This document shows, in pieces, positions 1,853 to 25,432 of a stretch of DNA of 64,000 nucleotides. Numbering within the stretch: the first letter of the stretch is position 1; every line of letters starts with the position of its first letter. The notes beneath the pieces were generated by a model, which saw only the letters and a list, made by a program, of their open reading frames with translations, made no database searches and had not been told where the DNA came from. Source of the DNA: Rutstroemia sp. NJR-2017a BVV2 (lineage: Eukaryota; Ascomycota; Leotiomycetes; Helotiales; Rutstroemiaceae); assembly GCA_002946415.1 (NCBI GenBank), contig NJPS01000048.1, positions 124,001 through 188,000 of the forward strand, in the 5' to 3' direction. The position numbers were made by a program, and so were the translations under genes.

Positions 1853-4800
1853 TTGGTTCCTATGTGTTTTCCGAGTGTGGGTAACCTTCCCATTTGATCA
1901 AGTAATGAAGCTTTCCTCTAATATACTTCTGATCTAGTATTTCTTCAACTTCGTATTCGGCGTTTGGGTTGATTGGTTCAATTTCGGTATAAGGTGTATT
2001 CGGCGCTCCTGGTGGTGCTGGTTCTAGAAGTGAAATGTGGAATACTGGGTGTATGTTCATTGTTCGTGGTAGCTCTAAGCGGTAATTGACTGGTCCGACC
2101 ACTTCGCTGATCTTGAAGGGTCCTAATTTTTTGTGATCCAGCTTGTCGCTTGGTCTTTTTGTGTTGATGTTTCGTCTGAGGAGGTAAACCTTATCCCCCT
2201 TCTTAAGCGTTGGTTCCATACTACGCTTTGTGTTGTAGTAGTGCGCCGTTCGTTGTGCAATGAACTTGATGTCAAGTGACAATTGTTCGTGCAGATTCCT
2301 AAGATCCTCTGCTTTCGTTATCCCTGTATCTGATTTTGCTGTATCCGGTAATTGCGTATTGTATGCTTTCGGCTCGAATCCGAAATTAGCGTATGCTGGT
2401 GTTATGTTTGTCGTTGTTGCTTTAGCAGTGTTGTATGCAAACTGTGCCAGTGGTAGTAGCTCTACCCAATTGTCTTGCTTGTAGTTGATATAATATCGTA
2501 AGTATTGTTCCATAGTTTGGTTCAATCGTTCCGTCTGACCATCTGTTTGCGGGTGGAATGCTGTTGAGAGCTTTCTCTTGATTCCTAGTAAGGCTGTGAG
2601 TGTCTGCTAGAATTTCGAGGTAAAGAGCTTGTCTCGGTCTGAGATGATTTCGGTAGGCACCCCGTGTACGCTGGCTACTATTCTTAGAAATATGTAGGCT
2701 AAATCCTCAGCTGTACTGCTTTCTTTGTATGGAATCATGTATCCAAACTTGGTTAATCGATCCACTATGACCAGGATAGAGTTATACGTTACTTCTGTCA
2801 TTGGGTCCTTCGAGGGTGGTAGCTTAACCACGAAGTCCTATGTAATGGACTTCCATGGCTGAGTAGGTGTATCCGGAGTTTTGAGCTGACCATACGGAGC
2901 ATGCTGTGAGGTTTTGTTCCGTATGCAGGTGTCGCAGTTTCCGATAACTTCCTCAACTATCTTTCTCATTTGTGGGAAATACGAGCTCGCCTTGATTCTT
3001 GCGAACGTCTTTGTGATTCCTTGATGTCCGTGAGCTGGTAGTTCATGCTGTTCCTGAGTAAACTGTTTGGCCAAGGTCGAAGGGATATATATCTTCCCGT
3101 GGAAGTATATGATGTTGTCCTTGATTGTAAATCCCTCGCCTGGTCGCTCTAGTATTCTCTTTGCGGTGGAATTATTTTCGTAGTGCTCTTGTACTTGTTT
3201 CTCCAAATGGTCGTCACAAAGTGACGTTATCGTGGCTAATTGGGCTGAGTTGAATACCAACGAATCCCCGTCCTGACGAAATATGGCGTGTGATTCGTGT
3301 GTCTTATTCTCTAGGTATTCCGGTTTTCTGCTAAGCGCATCGGCTCTAGCGTTTTCATTTCCCTTGACGTACAGTATTCTGAAGTGGTACATGGCTAATG
3401 TTTCTGCCTATCGTACCTGTCGTCTGTTTAGAACTTTGGTCGTTATAAAGTACACCAAATTCTTGTGATCTGAGTAGACCTGGACCGTGTGCTTAGATCC
3501 TTCGAGGTAAACTCTCTATTCTCTGAAAGCATCGACGATTGCTAGAAGCTCTTTGTCGTAAATCTCGTAATTCAGCTCGGCTGGCTGAAGCTTTCTTGAA
3601 TGATATGCTACTGGTTGTAGCTTCTTGTCCTTGCCCGGCTGGCTTAGGACTGCACCTAATGTGTAGTCTGATGCATCTGTCTTAACAGTGATTGGTTGTT
3701 CGGGATCGAAGGTAATAAGAACTGGTGCCCGCGTGAAGGCTTGTTTGAGGGTTTCAAATGCCTGTTGCGCCGCACTGTTCCATTTGTACTCGACATCCTT
3801 CTTGGTTAACTCTGTGAGAGGTGCTGCGATTTTCGAATAGTCTTTGATAAATCGCCTGTAGAAGTTCGCAAATCCTAAGAATGATTGCATTTCTTTCACA
3901 GTAGTGGGTTGCTTCCACTCCAGAACTTCTTTCACTTTGTTTGGACTCATCTTGAGTCCTGTCGTACTGACAATATATCCTAGAAACTCGGTTTCGGTGA
4001 CGTGGAATTCGCATTTCGAAGGCTTCAGTAGGATGCCTGCATCCGCTAATATCTGAAGTATTTCTTGTACGATCTTGATATGTTCTTCGAGGGTTTCGGT
4101 GAAGATCAAGATGTCGTCTAAGTATGCTACGCAGTAGTTGTCAAGACACTTTCTCAATAAGTTATTAACCAGATGCATGTACGTTGCTGGTGCGTTGGTG
4201 AGCCCAAAGGGCATAACTTGGTACTCGTAGTGTCCGTATCGCGTGCGAAATGCTGTTTTCCATTCGTCTCCTTCCTTGATTCGGATTAGGTTGAATCCTG
4301 CGCGTTGATCCAACTTAGTGAAATATTTAGCCTTCCCGATTCGATCTCGTAGCTCACTGGCTAGTGGCAACGGGTATCGATCCTTAATAGTAATAGCGTT
4401 GAGTTTTCGGTAGTCAATGACTGGTCTACCCTTCTTGTCTCCTTTCTTGGGTACAAAGAAGATTGGCGCTCCTGTGGGTGAAGAGGATTCCTTTATGAAT
4501 CCTTTCGCTAAATTTTCGTCGAGGTATTCGCGAAGCAATTTGAGCTTCTCCTCCGATAATGGTATAATTGGCAAGAATGGTGGTTCCTTTCCTTCTTCCA
4601 ATTTTATCTCATGATCCCAAGGCTGGTGCTTTGGTAAGGCATCCTCCTGAGGCCTTTCCTTGAAGATCTCGGCGTATTTCTGGTACTGCACTGGTATATC
4701 CTTCAGTGAGGGATCCTGGGCTAAGGTATCCGACCTCGGTGAGCGTGTTGCTTTCAGCTCTTGACCGGGTGTTGGTCTCGCAAGACCCCGTGCAGACTCT

Positions 4801-6914
4801 TTCTTGCACTTGTACTTATCGCACTGTACGGTCCTTGCGACCCAGTCGATATGCGGATTGTGGCTCTCTAGCCATGGTATTCCCAAAATTAGTTGGTGTC
4901 CTCCTAGTGGGACTAAATCCATTTTTATCCGCTCAGAATGCTGTCCTAGCTGCATTTCGAATTCTTGCGTTTCGTACTGAACCAATCTATCCCCTTTGGC
5001 TAATTGCCCGTCGGCAAGGTGAAGCCTGTATGGAACTGGTTTCTTGAGGGTTCGTAATTTCGCTAATGCCGCAGCTTCTGGTGCCATAAAATTTTCCGTT
5101 GCTCCCGAGTCTATCATTGCTCGGAGCGAATGCCCGTTTATGCGTACGACGCAAAGGATCTGTCCTGACCCTAGGGTGGCCTTCAGCTCCCTGGCTGGCC
5201 CCCTGCTCACGCCTTCGGTGAGTCATTCCTGATTAATTTTTTTCTGGTTTCGGTCCACGACCTTAGGCTTGCTGCCTTTCATGAAACCAAAGAATCTCTT
5301 CTGGGTATCGATTATATCTTCCCAAACCGTGCTTAGATCCGTTCCGATCCTTACTCTGAGGATTCGGCCAATAGGAATGTCGATATATTTGGTAGGTACC
5401 TCGTGTCTAAGGACCTGTAATACCACCTGTTGTGGTTGAGTCAGTTCTTGTAGTAGTGTATTTCGTTGGTCCTTGTGACTATATTGGTGAATGACCTCCC
5501 AAGTCTCTCCGTTGCTTGGTAGATTGTATTGCTGAAACTCCCTGAATCCCCGGTGGGTTCGAGTTTCCCGCCATACTCTGGTAGAGCCAATCTCAAGTTC
5601 CAGCTTGTAGTAGCGACCTGCGATTGGTTGACCTCGGACATCCCGAGCATCGTTCCAGAGTCCGTTATCGCCTGGTAAGCCGGCAAATTCCTTTTTTCTC
5701 CAAGACCTGGTTCCGTAGTGACTGATTCTTTCTAGGAACCATATCTCTCCCTGCTTTGGAGGTTCGTCTTGGGTAGTAGTTTTCTTGCTGCTAGGCTTCC
5801 TTGGGTACCAGCCTGCCCCCTTCTTATCTGCCTCATGAACTAGGCAAGAATCCTTGTAGCAGGCGGTCCACGACAGTTGCACATGATCCGTTTCCTGAAT
5901 AGTTCGATGACTGCTCGTCATGCTTAATTGGTGCCTGGGTACAGCCTGGCCACCGTCTTGTCCTACCATAGACTTGAGCTGTTTCTTTCCATTCCAGTTA
6001 GTTTGCTTGGGCTTCGTCCCTTGAGGCTTTTTTCGGCAGTCTCGTGCTTGGTGGCCTGGAAAACCGCATTCGAAGCAAAGCTTCTTTTCTCGTCTGCGGT
6101 TCTTTTCATCCTGGGAAAGGTTGTTCTTTGAACTCATTGCGTCTAATTCCATAGGGTCGCCGTAAGTCCCTTCCCTAGTGTATCGTTGTCTGGAATGTCG
6201 TGGCTTGCCTTCGTTAGGCCTGGCCCGACTTCTGGTTCCATGGGACTGCTTTTCTCGGAGGTACTCATAGTACTGGTTGTCAATCCGAATAGAGTCCTCA
6301 ATCCATTTATCCAGGTCGTCGTCATCTTCCTGTGTTTGCCTTGCTAATTCTAGTTTGATGAAGTCTTTCAGCCCACGCTTATAGTGGCTGATCAAGGCAG
6401 CAGTTCCCTATTTGGTCTGATTGGACCATTTCCTGAATTCGGTAGCGTAGTTGATGGCTGACCCTGTTTGTCTAAGTCCAAACAAACGATGCTCTGCTGT
6501 CTTGACAGAGTCGATATCTCCAAAGACTCTTCGGATTTCCGTACGAAATCCTTCCCATGAGTCGAAGATCTTGGTGGTCGTAGCCATATAGTTCTGTGGC
6601 TGGGCGCTGTTCTCGAAGTAGTCTGAAAGAAAGGGTTCGATCCATTTCAATGCTTCGCCCCTAAGGTAGGAAGCGGCGTAAATGCTCTTTGCATCTCTGG
6701 TATCGAATTTGTCGGGGTTAAATCGGAAGTACATTCCGAGCTGCAAGAGGAATGTCTCAAGTTCTCGTCGGTCTCCGTGGAACTTGTCTGGGTTGGCGAC
6801 TTTAAGGGTTTCTTGTAACTTGAGGTTTGTAGGAGGTCCGTCTCCTATGAGGACGTCGCCATCGCGGTCTCCAGTGCCCGTGGTCCGGGTAGCGGATGGA
6901 TCTTGTGGAGCCAT
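1719..6914 (-). pseudogene. gag-pol: Gag-Pol polyprotein of the Gypsy element, broken by seven in-frame stops
   Basis: One continuous minus-strand frame. Order: Gag (6914 to about 6000, ending in a CCHC zinc knuckle CFECGFPGHQARDC); aspartic protease (DSGATENF, about 5110); reverse transcriptase (YLDDILIF, about 4120); RNase H (TDASDYTLGAVLS, about 3680); integrase with an H2C2 zinc finger (about 2950) and catalytic core; C-terminal chromodomain (LIKWEGYP, about 1890). Stops lie at 6408-6410, 5223-5225, 3516-3518, 3408-3410, 2838-2840, 2607-2609 and 1860-1862. All are in frame with no indel. Six are TAG and several sit where the family has Trp. On the plus strand the TAGs read CTA, as expected from CCA to CTA, i.e. 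CpA to TpA, the dinucleotide RIP prefers. This copy cannot make the full polyprotein, but an intact relative could mobilise it. Confidence 0.93.
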
Positions 6915-10129: not shown

Positions 10130-12108
10130 ATGGAACCACAGGCAAGCGAGCTTTGCAATTTCTGCATTGGATTAATTCCGCCAAAGGAAGGATCGTCGCT
10201 AAATCGAGATCATCATCCTAACATGGGGCTTCTAGAAAGATGTAGTCAAGACTGTTTGATTTGTAGAGTTTTGTTAGGCGATTGGTCCCTAGAAAAGATT
10301 CGACGAAGGTTTCCAGACATTGGGAACAAAGCCTACGAATCCATGGCTCTTGAGGTCAAAGTGAAAGAAGTTCGGCGTGTTGGCTCTGGAATTTCATGGG
10401 CAATATTAGAGGTTGATTTTTATATTCGAGGATTCATCTATTGTTCCTCTTTTTCAATCACTACATGCAACGCCAAATGTATGTTAGCACCTCCCCTATT
10501 GCTTGATATCCGCTTAAGGATCTCTTCACAGCCGGTAGTGCAAGCCTGCCGATTTGGAGAGGTGCTACTACATCGTCCTCGGATAAAGTCTTTACCTTGA
10601 AGTCGTGGCTTCATGATTGCGAGACTAACCACAAGAACTGCAAGACTCCTGTGCGTCAACTGCCGAAGAGGTTGATAGATATTGGCTCGCTCGGTGTTCG
10701 TCCACCCAGACTTGTCATGTCTGAAGATTTACACCACCAAGATATCAAATACGCTACCTTGAGCTATTGCTGGGGAAACCAAAATTTATGTACGTATGGA
10801 GAGAATGAGAGTTCATACAAGGAAGGAATACCGTTTCAGCTCATTCCCAGGACTCTACAGGATGCTATGACCTTGACATACAACTTAAATATACAATATC
10901 TATGGATTGATGCTCTCTGTATAATCCAGGATAACGACGCAGAATGGAAAGCCGAAATTCCTAGGATGCAAGATATCTACTCAGGGAGCTCGATCACAAT
11001 TGCCGCTACAGATGCAATTGACTGTTCCGTCGGCTGCTTTTTCCCTGAGCCCAGAGAGTTGGATAAGAGCGAAGTTTTCTTAACCATCTCAAACACTGGT
11101 TGTGATGTGGGAACCATTGTGCGAGTCCAGAAGGGCGATATCAGGACATCTGCGGGATACTCAGCACTTAATACTAGAGGCTGGGTTCTTCAAGAGCTGG
11201 TGCTCTCACATCGCACCGTGCATTGCATGCGCGCTGGACTCTATTGGGAATGTAGATCTGAGTGCCGGAGTGAGGCAGGTCTTGTGTTCGATCGAGCAGC
11301 AAATCATCAGAGTTCAGTACCTGTTCTATCTGGAAATATGCGGCACGCGACGTTTAAAACATGGTGGAAATGGATCGAAAGTTACTCGCGACGACATTTC
11401 TCCTTCTGGAATGACAGGCTTCCAGCCTTAATTGGAATCGTTCAGTACTATCAACAGGCTACAGAAGATGTCCCAATTCTCGGCCTATGGGAAGGTTCTT
11501 TTTGCCAGGACTTACTGTGGATGAGAGTTACGAAACTGGCTGAAGAGGTTGAGCCAACTCCAATTGAACAGATTGAATTTCCGTCTTGGACCTGGTTATC
11601 GTGCGCCTACGAAATTGCCTACGATTTCTGGAAACCCTCCCGCGGTAATGACGAGCTAAATCAAGATGTGCACGACCATGTCAACCTGGTCGAGTGGAAC
11701 GTGGTTTGGACCTCTGAGCCCTTAATATCCAGGATTGAATCCTCTCGACTGGTATTAGAGGGGCCGGTCCAAGAACATATGCTGAGCGTTGCACCTCAAG
11801 GAAAAGATCACAATCCTACCTACTTGGACGTTGACAACGAGAAGCCAGATTTTGAAAATCGTCCTTTTCCATGGAGATGTTCCGGTCAGTTCGACGACGG
11901 ACCCCGAATATCCCGTGTTCAATATTTGTGTCTCCTTTTAAGATCAAGAGATTCTGAGGAGAATGGAAAGACATACATAAGGGAGACATTCCTTATTCTG
12001 GAATCTGACTACAGCACTGATGCATATCGGCGAGTTGGAATAGGAAACTTTTTCGGAGAGGAAAGAAGTTTTGATCCAAAACTTCGACGTACTATAAGTC
12101 TCCTTTGA
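10130..12108 (+). CDS. HET-domain protein (heterokaryon incompatibility), two exons
   Basis: Model: join(10130..10478, 10532..12108), 641 aa. The 53-nt intron (GTATGT..CACAG) is the choice that brings the two reading frames together. The N-terminus has a CxxC-type cap (CNFC, then CSQDCLICRVL). The HET domain runs from about residue 189 (YATLSYCWG) through 238-249 (YLWIDALCIIQD) to RGWVLQE near 331, followed by a long C-terminal region with PSWTWLS. HET proteins trigger cell death after non-self recognition between hyphae; this one has no visible NTPase or repeat domain. It lies 1.7 kb from the RIP-ruined repeat block. The allele or partner it recognises cannot be told from sequence. The fold is certain, the specific role is not. 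Confidence 0.9.
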
Positions 12109-21415: not shown

Positions 21416-22632
21416 CTAAGCTTGGACTGCATCAGCTCCACGCTTGTAGGTTCCGTAGTTGGCGTAAGATCCATAGCCAGTTGGAGTTGGAGTAGAGGTT
21501 GAGGATGATGAGGATGCGGTTGGGTATTTCTCGTAGTTGCCGTCTAAAAGATGTTCATGTTAGTAAATACTCTCGACATTGCTGCTGGATTTCACGGACA
21601 GTTGCCGTAGTTACCATCTAGGCGGGCGTAAAGTCAGCATTGCTCAGCCATAGCCATGAGACAATCCTTCAACTAATACCAAACTGACAGCAGCGAATGA
21701 AGGGGGATAGACTTACAGTCACCGTAGTTGCCATAGTCTGCTGGGTTGGCCTCTGGTGCCGCCTCACGAGCCTTCTTGTTCTTGTATGTTCCGTCTATTG
21801 AATTGGTTAGTTTGTAAAGATTTCACCATGGACGATGTACTCACAGTTTGCATAAGAGCCGTATCCTGTTGGAGTTGGGGATGCGGTAGTGGAGGTGGAA
21901 GTAGAAGTGGAGGTGGGCTTGGCAGTAGTGGAGGTGGAGGTGGAAGTGGAAGTAGCTGGTGTGTAGTTCTCATAGTTGCCATCTAGAAGTCCATGATATC
22001 AGTTCTGCGTGGCATTCAATATGATGAGAGGTACTAACAGTTCCCGTAGTCACCATAGTTTCCGTAGTCTGCAGGAGCAGCTTCTGGGGCAGGTTCTGGA
22101 GCAGCTTCTCTGGCCTTCTTGTACGAGTTGTATGTACCATCTATGAAGACTTGATTAGCAAATGCATTCAAAGTATTGCCAATTCAGGGTACACTTACAT
22201 GAGCCATAGTTTCCGTATCCGGTAGGAGTAGGAGTGGCAGTGGTTGAGGTCGAGGTTTTGCTTGTGCTTGTGCTCGAGGTGGAGGTGGTGGAGGGAGTCG
22301 AGGTGGAGGTGGAGGTGGGGGAGGGAGTAGAGGTGGTAGTCTTAGAGGTGGTCGTAGCAGGAATGGTATCTAAGTCGTCAATGTAAGTCTTAAGTCAACG
22401 CCCAAGGCTCAGTGAAATACTAACAGGCTCCGTAGTTGCCGTAGTTGCCATAGTCGCCATCTAAATCTATGATCAGTATGTGAGATTACCTAGTGAGCTT
22501 CAGGTACAACTTACAGTCACCATAGCCTTGAGGAGCAGCCTCAGCCTTGGCTACTGGTTCAGCAATTGGTGCGGCACTGACACCAGCGGCACCAAGTGCC
22601 AGAAGCAAGATGAAATCGCGTGAGAAGAGCAT
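21416..22632 (-). CDS. Secreted Tyr/Gly-rich repeat protein with dibasic sites, candidate RiPP (dikaritin-type) precursor, eight exons
   Basis: Exons (minus): 22632-22515, 22460-22425, 22369-22199, 22140-22039, 21982-21845, 21794-21717, 21617-21600, 21543-21416; 262 aa. Every junction is phase 1 and splits a Tyr codon as T|AY. Residues 1-20 form a signal peptide (MLFSRDFILLLALGAAGVSA). Two cassette types then alternate: Ser/Thr/Pro-rich linkers ending TPTPTGYG, and Tyr-rich units of type YGxYGxY that contain KK or KR, followed by AREAAPE or GADA. These dibasic sites plus Ala/Glu/Pro spacers resemble Kex2/Ste13 processing of pro-alpha-factor and of dikaritin precursors. It is transcribed divergently from the UstYa-family oxidase at 24374, about 1.7 kb away. 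Inference: processed, Tyr-crosslinked secreted peptides. Alternative: an O-glycosylated cell-wall protein. The donor of the 18-nt exon (GTCCGT) is weak, so that exon may be skipped. Confidence 0.8.
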
Positions 22633-24373
22633 TTTCAGAGGTATTTGTGGTGAGAAATGTGATGTGAAGGCTGCGAAGATCTAAGACTGGAGCGACTGGA
22701 GTGAGTGAATTGAGAGATGAGGAGCGAGTGATAGTGAAAGAAGTCAGATGTTCTGAGGATGAGGTGACTTTTATATACACTTGAGAAGCTAACTACATCC
22801 TCAAAGATGGTGTAAACACCACAATATCTGCAGCTGCGGACAATCGATGCAAACAGCAGCCCAGCCTAGAACCGAAGACAATGTTGGCGAGCTAGCTTGG
22901 CATCTTGTCGGACAATCTGAGGTGTGCTTGACATGAAAGCAGCAGCTTCCCCCACGTCATCCCATCCGGGTATCCATCTTAGGCTAGAATGGCGACACCG
23001 ACTTATCGACGATTAAGCAATAAAGCAAAATGAAGACGTGATAGAAGCAAGGAGTACGAGATGCATCCAGTACCTTCTACGTAGCGGTCCACTCGGTGCG
23101 CTGCGATACTCCACGTAAAATTCGTATCTGCATAGCCACTTGGCTGGTGGTTTGGTGGTTTTCCGGAAAACCAAGATCCTCCCGTCAGTTATCCCACAAT
23201 TTTGGGTGCTTATGGTGAGGTAGCATTGGCCCAAGGTGGGAGGCCGCAGAAGATCGCGGGGTCGTCGGCAATATCTCGCTCGTGTGGAGAGCTCGTATTG
23301 GGAGGATCTACGTTCAGGTGATGGATACGAGATCCTGCTTAAAGAGTTCGCCGTGTTTGTGGGAGGCCGGATAAAGAGGTACCCATGACAATATTGGCTA
23401 CAAGTGCAGTGCGAATATAGTATAAGATAAAGTTTTAACCTTGATGAGAATCCTGAGATGCATCAATGGGATGTTCGGGGACCTTCTAGGGATGGAGCTT
23501 GTGTTCTAAGTTGCGTTCTAAGTTGTGCAGTAGACAGGTGACAGCAGTCAACCTTAGCTCAGGACAGGCAGGACACAGGACTCGGCAAGGACTCGGCAAG
23601 GACCGCAAGGACCGTAAGGACCAGTAAGGACTCGTGTTATATTTAGACATGTGTACTTGTACTTGTACTATGCAAGTTGTACGGCTGTACCTCGTAAGGT
23701 TAAGCAGAGACAACTCAGGCATCTCACCATCTTACTCTCTCTCGCCTCTCCCTCTCAGCCCACTTCACGTAGAACATCGACCTTCCAGCCTTCGTGGGTA
23801 CTTTTCCAGAACGTCTCACTGCAAACACATCCTTGGACACACTGTGGACTCTTCCCATTGGCCTGGATTCAATTGCCGAGGTCGCCAAGCCACCACGCCC
23901 ACCGCACCCACTCCGCTCCCCCCACCCCAACGCCTTTAGCCTCTTCCGTGTTTACGGATTATGATGATGCAAACGTCCATAATATCTCGTATTTCCAACC
24001 ACATCGCAAGACTTTGGTGCGTCGTGCATGCAGCTTGATGTCCGTCGCTTCCAAGCCTCCAGCGTGCCATCTAAGGTGCCACTAGTCGAACCATTGTCGA
24101 TGCGATAAGGCTTAACTCAGACAACTAATCCGCCTACGGTAAGGATGACCTTCTTCACTAATGTACACGGTAGGACGGCGAAGTCGCTGCCCCGTGTTGG
24201 ACCATTTGAAAGCTTTTCCAGACTTCACTTCTCCCCTCCGGATGTTTCTCTGCTAGAAGTGTTTCCATCTCATCTGCCATTTCTTCCACTCTGATATATC
24301 TTAATGTCTGTTGGTTGTGCCCATCCCCATCCCCATCTCTGATACCAACATCTCGGCTCGTCCTGCTGCCAAA
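22633..24373. promoter_or_regulatory. Divergent intergenic region between the precursor-like gene and the UstYa gene
   Basis: 1.74 kb shared upstream region. Small ORFs here (for example 23651-24085) are low in coding character. Short tandem pieces (GGACTCGGCAAGGACCGCAAGG-like) occur at 23575-23630. If the flanking genes form a cluster, shared control elements should lie here, but I recognise no specific operator. Confidence 0.45.
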
Positions 24374-25432
24374 ATGTCCTATTCTCCATTATCCGACAAG
24401 TTCAATCATGAATCTCAATCCGAGGACAATGAAGGATTGCTGTCTCGAGAACAGACAACATATAGGAAACCCCCACGGAGAAGTGGCATGTTATGGTGCA
24501 TCCTATCGATTCCGTTGATATCATTATGTTCCGTCATCTTTGGTGCTTGGATTGGAGCCCGTTTCCTGGTACAACCAGAGAAGTTGTGTCCAGAATATGT
24601 GCAACATTACTGTATGACACTTCGAATATGTTCAATTGAGGTCTCTGCTAACATAGGATAGCTCCCATTCTCAAGGACGTTGATACTTCCTATCAGCCAG
24701 TTCTTTTCAATGGATCATTTATGAAGGAGAATGCCTTCAGACTGAAAGCGGGACCGGAAGTAGACACCGCATGGGCAAGTTTAGGGGTTCATTGTAAGTC
24801 TTCCTTCTTTCTCTCTTCGCTCCACCCGATCTCTTGCTCACCATCTGCAGACAGGAGTATAGCATTGCCAGCCAGCGAAGCGGAAAAGTCCGGTTTGACC
24901 CCTGCCCACGTACAAATCAACGAGAAATACGGTGGAGGATTTCCAGTAAACGTGGAAGGATTGCACCACTTGCATTGCCTTGTAGGTATTCCGCCGGTAT
25001 TGAGAAGGGGTGAATATTAACCGTCTGCAGAACCTCGTGCGACAATCGTTATACTACAACTACGACTATTACCACGAGCAAGGCAAAGGAGCATTTGTGA
25101 ACGACGACAACATTGTTCAATACCACGTCTGTAAGTTTACCTGGACCCTTTCCAACAGTATAATGTCAATACCTCATACTAACTCATCGAAAGCTCATTG
25201 TCTAGATATCATCCGCCAACAACTTATGTGCACGATCGATACTGGAGTTCTGGGACAAGTATGGTGGGACAAAGAGAGACCTCAAGCCTTCGTCGATTTC
25301 AACACCGAACATAGATGCAAGAATTTCGATGCGATTAGACAATGGGCTGAGGAGAGACAAATGCCAGAGGCAGGACCACCAGATTTCCTGCAGAGACCGA
25401 AGGAGAGTGATGTTCTGGAAGCGATACCGTAA
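24374..25432 (+). CDS. UstYa-family (DUF3328) oxidase, five exons
   Basis: Model: join(24374..24611, 24662..24793, 24851..24981, 25031..25130, 25194..25432), 279 aa. Introns are 49-63 nt with GT..AG ends, and each choice keeps the frame and the family pattern. A cytosolic N-terminus is followed by one membrane helix (about residues 45-67, LWCILSIPLISLCSVIFGAW). The lumenal domain carries LFNGSF and the two hallmark HxxHC motifs: HHLHC (exon 3) and HVSHC (exons 4-5), the latter continuing into LDIIRQQLMC. In ustiloxin, phomopsin and asperipin pathways, UstYa-type proteins oxidise and cyclise Tyr-containing ribosomal peptides in the secretory pathway. Its divergent neighbour encodes a secreted Tyr-rich repeat protein, a likely substrate. 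The motif set makes the family certain; the substrate is inference. Confidence 0.93.

What the first reader, a model, noticed from the sequence alone, without database searches (positions are those of the whole stretch)
21416..25432. Candidate minimal dikaritin-type RiPP cluster: secreted Tyr-rich repeat precursor divergent from an UstYa-family oxidase
Seen: a 262-aa protein with signal peptide, alternating Tyr/Gly-rich repeats and KK/KR sites with Ala/Glu/Pro spacers, 1.7 kb from a DUF3328 protein with one membrane helix and two HxxHC motifs. Established: ustiloxin, phomopsin and asperipin pathways use Kex2-cleaved repeat precursors and UstYa-type oxidases acting on Tyr. Inference: the pair makes crosslinked Tyr/Gly peptides. 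The long Ser/Thr-rich linkers between repeats are not typical of known dikaritin precursors, so the product class may be new. No P450, peptidase or transporter of the pathway is visible nearby.
Basis: partly seen in the sequence, partly recalled or inferred. Interest (0 to 1): 0.9.

Follow-up and report, generated by a model that had tools for sequence, protein, structure and literature searches.

The report
Fungal tyrosine-ladder peptide–copper oxidase pair
A fungus carries, side by side, a secreted protein built of evenly spaced tyrosines and a copper enzyme of the kind that cross-links tyrosines, and both genes have relatives across several fungal classes, so this may be an old peptide system of moulds rather than a one-off toxin.

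Summary
Minus strand 22632-21416 encodes a 262-aa secreted-looking repeat protein (8 exons). Divergent, 1.74 kb away, lies an intact UstYa/DUF3328 oxidase (24374-25432, 279 aa). A Kex2-type repeat precursor beside such an enzyme is a known kind of pair. Distinctive here: (1) Repeats are 'tyrosine ladders': neighbouring Tyr exactly 3 apart in 26 of 31 own steps, 269 of 367 over 18 sequences. (2) Seventeen precursor-like relatives, the six named ones in five classes (weakest: Fusarium). (3) This UstYa group is 47-82% identical over 46 chosen homologues, while own-genome paralogue fragments are 23-45%. (4) In the 2 of 17 precursor hits that could be checked, precursor and UstYa sit on contigs of identical length. 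(5) All 7 introns split a Tyr codon, so all 28 pairwise exon joins stay in frame and rewrite a Tyr. No P450, tyrosinase or S41 peptidase was found near. Most likely UstYa oxidises or cross-links the tyrosines in the secretory pathway; product and function are unproven.

The parts
21416..22632 (-). Tyr-ladder precursor gene, 262 aa. Exons 22632-22515, 22460-22425, 22369-22199, 22140-22039, 21982-21845, 21794-21717, 21617-21600, 21543-21416
   Evidence: splicing; 6 of 6 matches at E 0.001 in the assembly fall here; no Pfam family
22567..22632 (-). N-terminal signal-like segment MLFSRDFILLLALGAAGVSA-AP
   Evidence: read directly from the translation; no signal-peptide program available
22109..22120 (-). 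first dibasic site KKAR, followed by EA-AP-EP-AP-EA-AP spacer
   Evidence: translation; dipeptide register counted
21766..21777 (-). second dibasic site KKAR, followed by EA-AP-EA-NP spacer
   Evidence: translation
21440..21445 (-). third dibasic site KR, directly after ladder YGSYANYGTY
   Evidence: translation
21600..21617 (-). 18-nt microexon; adds six ladder residues in frame
   Evidence: all six internal exons are multiples of 3
22461..22514 (-). first of seven phase-1 introns, each splitting a Tyr codon T|AY (others 22424-22370, 22198-22141, 22038-21983, 21844-21795, 21716-21618, 21599-21544)
   Evidence: 7 of 7; intron sequences mutually unrelated
24374..25432 (+). UstYa/DUF3328 oxidase, 279 aa, exons 24374-24611, 24662-24793, 24851-24981, 25031-25130, 25194-25432
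   Evidence: PF11807 E 4e-64; 98% identical to Rutstroemia P0005, 84% to Sclerotinia P0006
24488..24571 (+). single N-terminal membrane-helix-like segment
   Evidence: sequence; helix 38-65 in the model of the orthologue P0010
24964..24978 (+). first HxxHC motif (HHLHC)
   Evidence: lies in helix 160-174 of the P0010 model
25124..25201 (+). second HxxHC motif (HVSHC), split by intron 25131-25193
   Evidence: lies in helix 194-213 of the P0010 model

Best explanation
The pair is a minimal Kex2/UstYa ribosomal-peptide system. The precursor enters the secretory pathway (inferred from its N-terminus). Kex2 cuts after KKAR/KK/KR (inferred), and a Ste13-type dipeptidyl peptidase strips the X-Ala/X-Pro spacers (inferred from their register). 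This releases three units, each 'Tyr ladder - linker - Tyr ladder'. The neighbouring membrane-bound binuclear-copper UstYa oxidises the ladder tyrosines and probably joins them, within a unit into a hairpin-like macrocycle or between units into a cross-linked oligomer (inferred). The linkers act as variable tethers (inferred). Because both partners have relatives in several classes, the product is more likely a core developmental, surface or signalling peptide of filamentous ascomycetes than a recent toxin (inferred).
For: UstYa complete, PF11807 4e-64. Two HxxHC motifs in 118 of the 120 listed homologues and in 45 of the 46 rows of A2, each in a helix of the model. DUF3328 proteins are binuclear copper enzymes using that motif, and AprY is a cyclase of the family (PMC12435403 passages; that AprY is the asperipin enzyme is recalled). 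They make the Tyr ether cross-link of asperipin-2a (PMC12186524 passages). Tyr spacing of 3 in 269 of 367 steps in 18 sequences, some of which read through introns. YGxYK occurs 33 times, 22 of them running straight into KR. In 15 spacers that a pattern could parse, from 11 of the 18 sequences, Ala/Pro occupy the second dipeptide position 65 times and the first 13 times within the first 10 residues. One Kex2-type P-domain match, and one DPPIV_N gene seen at the same coordinates on two contigs. In this genome 4 of 20 other UstYa regions also hold a gene that looks like a Kex2-repeat precursor.
Against: No expression, peptide or enzyme data. Two of the three own sites are KK(AR), not KR. No extra peptidase, methyltransferase or exporter is evident at hand among the ORFs scanned. 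Known dikaritin cores are short (recalled), whereas the second and third units are 79 and 59 residues before trimming. The UstYa group is also found in Aspergillus and Penicillium, where my searches, limited to the best-matching 8000 or so candidates each, found no ladder precursor. The group is not cleanly one clade in the bootstrap: only 12% of 200 trees.
Confidence: 0.55

Rival explanations
1. The protein is a cell-wall or matrix glycoprotein: the Ser/Thr linkers are O-glycosylated, the ladders are oxidised into di- or isodityrosine-like bonds that hold it in the wall, and Kex2 cutting is partial or absent.
For: Own linkers of 50, 33 and 16 aa are 85-88% Ser/Thr/Pro; P0001, P0003 and P0004 also have Ser/Thr-rich linkers. 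Evenly spaced Tyr suits intermolecular cross-linking. The Acephala relative carries a Cys-rich stretch inside a linker. Rep1 peptides of Ustilago, Kex2-derived, form amyloid-like fibrils (PMC9769878 passage).
Against: KR plus in-register dipeptide spacers recur across the relatives, which fits processing. Several relatives have short Pro-rich linkers with few Ser/Thr.
Confidence: 0.22
2. The precursor yields linear, unmodified secreted peptides (hormone-like, as alpha-pheromone), and UstYa is a neighbour with another substrate.
For: Many Kex2-repeat proteins give linear peptides (PMC9769878 passages). EA/AP spacers are pheromone-like. UstYa homologues turn up in many genera, Aspergillus and Penicillium among them, where I found no ladder precursor, though the two searches are not of equal reach.
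Against: Same-length contigs in the 2 testable hits. Tyr content and regularity fit an enzyme family that acts on Tyr. In a survey, 65.6% of repeats with DUF3328 neighbours contained Tyr against 38.2% of those without (PMC7329392 section 7).
Confidence: 0.15
3. Chance neighbourhood: an ordinary Tyr/Gly-rich secreted protein beside one of the genome's many UstYa genes.
For: The UstYa search gave 79 exon-level matches in the assembly, so a UstYa neighbour is not rare in itself. The two-species linkage rests on contig length alone.
Against: The neighbour is the widely shared UstYa, not a random paralogue, and its orthologue shares contig lengths with the precursor elsewhere. Under random placement a 72-kb contig would hold a given gene about 0.2% of the time (my estimate, own genome size as proxy).
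Confidence: 0.06

Closest known systems
Asperipin-2a system (single DUF3328 enzyme)
   Same: One DUF3328 enzyme with a Kex2 repeat precursor; internal Tyr side chains are cross-linked (PMC7329392 section 7; PMC9233826 passages).
   Different: Asperipin has a bicyclic core (short, recalled); here each unit holds two ladders of 4-7 Tyr around a linker, and five of the six own ladders contain an intron.
Ustiloxin and phomopsin dikaritin clusters
   Same: Signal peptide, Kex2 repeats, UstYa-family oxidase.
   Different: No tyrosinase, S41 peptidase or P450 found near; repeats do not resemble the EDYxI core given in PMC6339444.
Kex2-processed repeat proteins with DUF3328 neighbours (Umemura 2020, PMC7329392)
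   Same: Same architecture; 1758 of 7878 such proteins had a DUF3328 gene within 15 genes, and DUF3328-linked types already span up to 20 genera.
   Different: Tyr-rich types are listed there, but logos are in a figure and tables in supplements not readable here, so it is unknown whether this family is among them.
Ascomycete alpha-pheromone precursors
   Same: KR followed by X-Ala/X-Pro dipeptides, Ste13-type.
   Different: Tyr ladders and no Trp at all; UstYa neighbour.
Rep1 of Ustilago maydis (Kex2-derived fibril peptides)
   Same: Secreted Kex2 repeats with possible structural role.
   Different: No DUF3328 partner is mentioned in the passage read; sequences not compared here.

Membership tests
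UstYa/DUF3328 enzymes | PF11807 over its curated cut-off | tested here: met
   216.9 bits against cut-off 25, profile 2-220 of 220
UstYa/DUF3328 enzymes | two HxxHC motifs forming the binuclear copper site | tested here: met
   HHLHC and HVSHC in the spliced protein; both in helices of the P0010 model. Copper binding itself not testable.
Kex2-processed repeat proteins | signal peptide | tested here: inconclusive
   clear by eye; no predictor available
Kex2-processed repeat proteins | repeats separated by Kex2 sites | tested here: met
   three sites, KKAR, KKAR and KR, after Tyr ladders. A gapless-repeat scan missed the gene; on the spliced protein the flanks of the three sites match at only 3-9 of up to 22 places.
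Dikaritins | DUF3328 class-defining enzyme clustered with precursor (definition from PMC12048977 passages) | tested here: met
   1.74 kb apart, divergent; same-length contigs in two other species
Dikaritins | side-chain cross-linked peptide product | not testable with these tools
   needs mass spectrometry
Ustiloxin/phomopsin type | tyrosinase, S41 peptidase, P450 in the cluster | tested here: not met
   nearest matches on the contig at C43:1845 kb, 1983 kb and 305 kb; window is C43:124-188 kb. Tyrosinase scored 25 of 25 and S41 4 of 4 candidates, P450 only 92 of 272, so the P450 part is weaker.
Ascomycete alpha-pheromone precursors | Trp-containing pheromone repeats | tested here: not met
   no Trp in the 262 aa; no Pfam match

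The most novel reading that the evidence does not exclude
A core, non-toxin peptide system of filamentous ascomycetes: a dedicated, slowly evolving copper oxidase zips together pairs of (Tyr-Gly-x)n ladders into a covalently cross-linked extracellular hairpin or fibre, and the gene's exon design, in which every splice junction writes a Tyr in ladder register, lets splicing or exon duplication change linkers, ladder length and Kex2 sites without breaking the ladder.
Probability: 0.2. Interest if true: 0.82.

Novelty: new variant of a known kind. Interest (0 to 1): 0.55.

Why it matters
The characterised DUF3328 peptide products are mostly toxins (recalled; PMC9233826 passages). A DUF3328 enzyme shared by several classes, with a recurring Tyr-ladder precursor, would point to an older, perhaps housekeeping use of this copper chemistry, although other DUF3328-linked precursor types are already known in up to 20 genera (PMC7329392). 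Because only two obvious genes are involved, enzyme and substrate can be tested directly by gene deletion and peptidomics in a tractable mould. The all-Tyr splice junctions are a striking, checkable case of modular exons in a repeat precursor.

Tried and rejected
Extra pathway genes: Pfam on 28 of the 142 stop-to-stop frames of 90 aa or more listed, plus the two spliced proteins, and whole-assembly searches for P450, tyrosinase and S41; none near. Recent intron copies: no, all pair z-scores 2.1 or less. Close UstYa paralogue in the own genome: none above 45% among fragments from the 20 fetched regions; several further UstYa places (on C2, C15, C25, C39, C55, C59, C68) were not fetched. A first homologue search with the full precursor gave 4 hits among 7993 scored candidates, perhaps because Ser/Thr words filled the list; a linker-free query gave 17 among 7999. 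PDB searches of UstYa found nothing useful (by sequence best E 1.1; by fold none at E 0.001), so the copper site rests on motif and literature. A first model was set aside because its lead sequence P0005, as annotated, lacks the second HxxHC motif. Paper PMC13278821 dropped: its 'ustya' hit was an author's name. Whether homologues share the T|AY intron position could not be settled: P0004, P0128, P0131 and P0133 seem to read through introns in the ladders, but without DNA the exact codon is unsure.
Full report
What is there. The window comes from a filamentous ascomycete close to Rutstroemia: the UstYa protein is 98% identical to P0005 (Rutstroemia sp. NJR-2017a BVV2) and 84% to a Sclerotinia sclerotiorum protein. 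It is part of contig C43 of a 43.4-Mb, 79-contig assembly. On the minus strand, 22632-21416, eight exons splice to a 262-aa protein. On the plus strand, 24374-25432, five exons splice to a 279-aa UstYa protein, PF11807 at E 4e-64. The ATGs are 1.74 kb apart and the genes diverge. Both gene models are mine, without RNA; the oxidase model is backed by close annotated homologues and the precursor model by the relatives found later.

The precursor. It starts with a signal-like segment, has no Pfam match, and appears single-copy: all 6 matches at E 0.001 lie at this locus. Its Tyr residues form ladders: 26 of 31 neighbouring pairs are exactly 3 apart, against a mean of 2.96 and maximum of 9 in 2000 shuffles. 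There are six ladders of four to seven Tyr, arranged in three units: ladder, linker, ladder, dibasic site. The linkers are 50, 33 and 16 residues and 85-88% Ser/Thr/Pro. The first two dibasic sites, KKAR, are followed by EA-AP type spacers; the last, KR, by a short tail.

Relatives. A search with the whole protein gave 4 hits among 7993 scored candidates. A linker-free chimeric query gave 17 among 7999, the four included. Six carry organism names: Amylocarpus and Acephala (Leotiomycetes), Xylographa parallela (Lecanoromycetes), Exophiala sideris (Eurotiomycetes), Rachicladosporium (Dothideomycetes) and, weakest at E 2.6e-4, Fusarium keratoplasticum (Sordariomycetes). The other 11 carry no name. 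E-values from a chimeric, repetitive query are to be taken loosely; I judged the hits by eye. Over the 18 sequences, 269 of 367 Tyr steps are 3. YGxYK occurs 33 times, 22 of them running straight into KR. In the 15 spacers that a pattern could parse, from 11 of the 18 sequences, Ala/Pro sit at the second position of the dipeptide 65 times and at the first 13 times within the first 10 residues. That is the register expected of Ste13-type trimming, described for alpha-pheromones in PMC9769878 (passages). Linkers vary: P0001, P0003 and P0004 have Ser/Thr-rich ones like the window's, while P0125, P0130, P0131 and P0135 have about 5-8 residues rich in Pro. One Acephala linker holds a Cys-rich stretch, residues 114-172, that could be real or a gene-model fusion (only a sub-threshold Pfam match). 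So the linker is the variable part and the ladders the recurring part.

Linkage. Precursor P0002 and UstYa P0031, both Amylocarpus, each lie on a single contig of 72,057 bases; P0003 and P0025, both Acephala, on one of 848,192. Equal lengths are taken as the same contig; the distance is unknown. These are the only 2 of the 17 hits that can be checked, because the UstYa list shows 120 of 450 proteins and most precursor contigs are unnamed. Both UstYa proteins fall within the group of the window's enzyme in the tree.

The oxidase. Of the 120 listed homologues, 118 have two HxxHC motifs. I chose 47 of the 120 for alignment A1; 46 of them are 47-82% identical to the first, P0005. In A2 (46 rows) the first motif is invariant; in the second the first His is invariant and the second His and the Cys reach at least 90%, 45 of 46 rows having both. 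Fragments from 20 other UstYa regions of the same genome are 23-45% identical to the window protein. A tree of 74 rows and 63 columns puts the window enzyme and the 47 homologues beyond a branch of length 6.72 (99/99), with short branches inside. Against this: one very long own fragment (from L016) falls inside the group, the bootstrap had not settled, 42 of 71 inner branches are open, and in only 12% of 200 bootstrap trees do the 48 rows stand alone. AlphaFold2 on orthologue P0010 gives mean pLDDT 78.9, pTM 0.65, one long N-terminal helix, and each HxxHC in a helix, as described for the copper site of CctR (PMC12435403 passages). No solved structure matches by sequence or fold.

Exon design. 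Seven of seven introns are phase 1 and split a Tyr codon (T|AY); they touch five of the six ladders. All six internal exons are multiples of 3, one being only 18 nt. Joining any earlier exon to any later one keeps the frame and writes a Tyr, 3 residues from the previous Tyr, in 28 of 28 pairs; the next Tyr is 3 away in 26 of 28. Intron sequences are unrelated to each other, so the positions have outlasted the sequences or the introns arose separately. Given introns at T|AY in a period-3 ladder the joining rule follows automatically, and part of it may reflect tandem duplication; whether exons are really skipped is unknown.

Surroundings. Whole-assembly searches place the nearest P450 match on this contig at C43:304.8 kb, tyrosinase at 1845 kb and S41 at 1983 kb, the window being 124-188 kb (the P450 search scored 92 of 272 candidates). 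A sugar-transporter-like gene lies near 35.5-36.9 kb, a HET-domain gene at 10.5-12.1 kb and pieces of a Tf2-like retroelement at 1.9-6.4 kb. One Kex2-type P-domain match, and one DPPIV_N gene at the same coordinates on C25 and C74, were found. In the same genome, 6 of 20 other UstYa regions gave gapless repeats around [KR]R; by eye four look like Kex2 repeat precursors (L016, L019, L025, L028) and two do not (L026, L027).

Comparison with print. Umemura 2020 (PMC7329392; outline, sections 6 and 7 read) found 1758 of 7878 Kex2-repeat proteins with a DUF3328 gene within 15 genes, several Tyr-rich types among them, and DUF3328-linked types spanning up to 20 genera; figures and supplements could not be read, so this family may be listed there. 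Le Marquer 2019 (PMC6339444; passages and section 10) names conserved motifs without this one. A string search for six ladder peptides found one unrelated paper, and the capped listings showed no study that I recognised as this family. A DUF3328 gene cluster was up-regulated in Sordaria protoperithecia (PMC3472292 passage), which is compatible with a developmental role for some members but was not compared with this gene.

Verdict. The finding is real and its class, Kex2 precursor plus UstYa, is known. The spread of the pair, the Tyr-ladder architecture and the exon design make it a distinct variant worth a direct test. Cross-linking, product and function are inferred.

Noticed in passing
own genome contigs C25, C50 and C74: Several matches on C25 and C74 have identical coordinates, and C50 matches recur on C74 in reverse, so C74 seems to repeat C25 and C50: redundant assembly.
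   Followed up: no
L028 (C28:697500-707000): Another UstYa locus with a long DADNAIVYPADAKR repeat precursor and a P450 match at C28:706923-707483; the repeat resembles the conserved DADAATxYV motif of Le Marquer 2019.
   Followed up: partly
L016, L019, L025: Three more UstYa regions with genes that look like Kex2-repeat precursors (VHGSYGYDKR, GANRYATAKR, FGPYPEDDYANSKR).
   Followed up: partly
window 1863-6407, minus: Tf2-like LTR retroelement pieces (chromo, reverse transcriptase, zinc knuckle).
   Followed up: no
window 10507-12105, plus: HET-domain (heterokaryon incompatibility) gene about 9 kb from the precursor.
   Followed up: no
P0003, Acephala precursor, residues 114-172: A Cys-rich stretch sits inside one linker between two Tyr ladders; real insert or gene-model fusion not settled.
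   Followed up: partly
P0005, Rutstroemia UstYa annotation: The public protein lacks the second HxxHC motif, perhaps a misplaced splice site, since the window DNA splices to an intact motif.
   Followed up: partly
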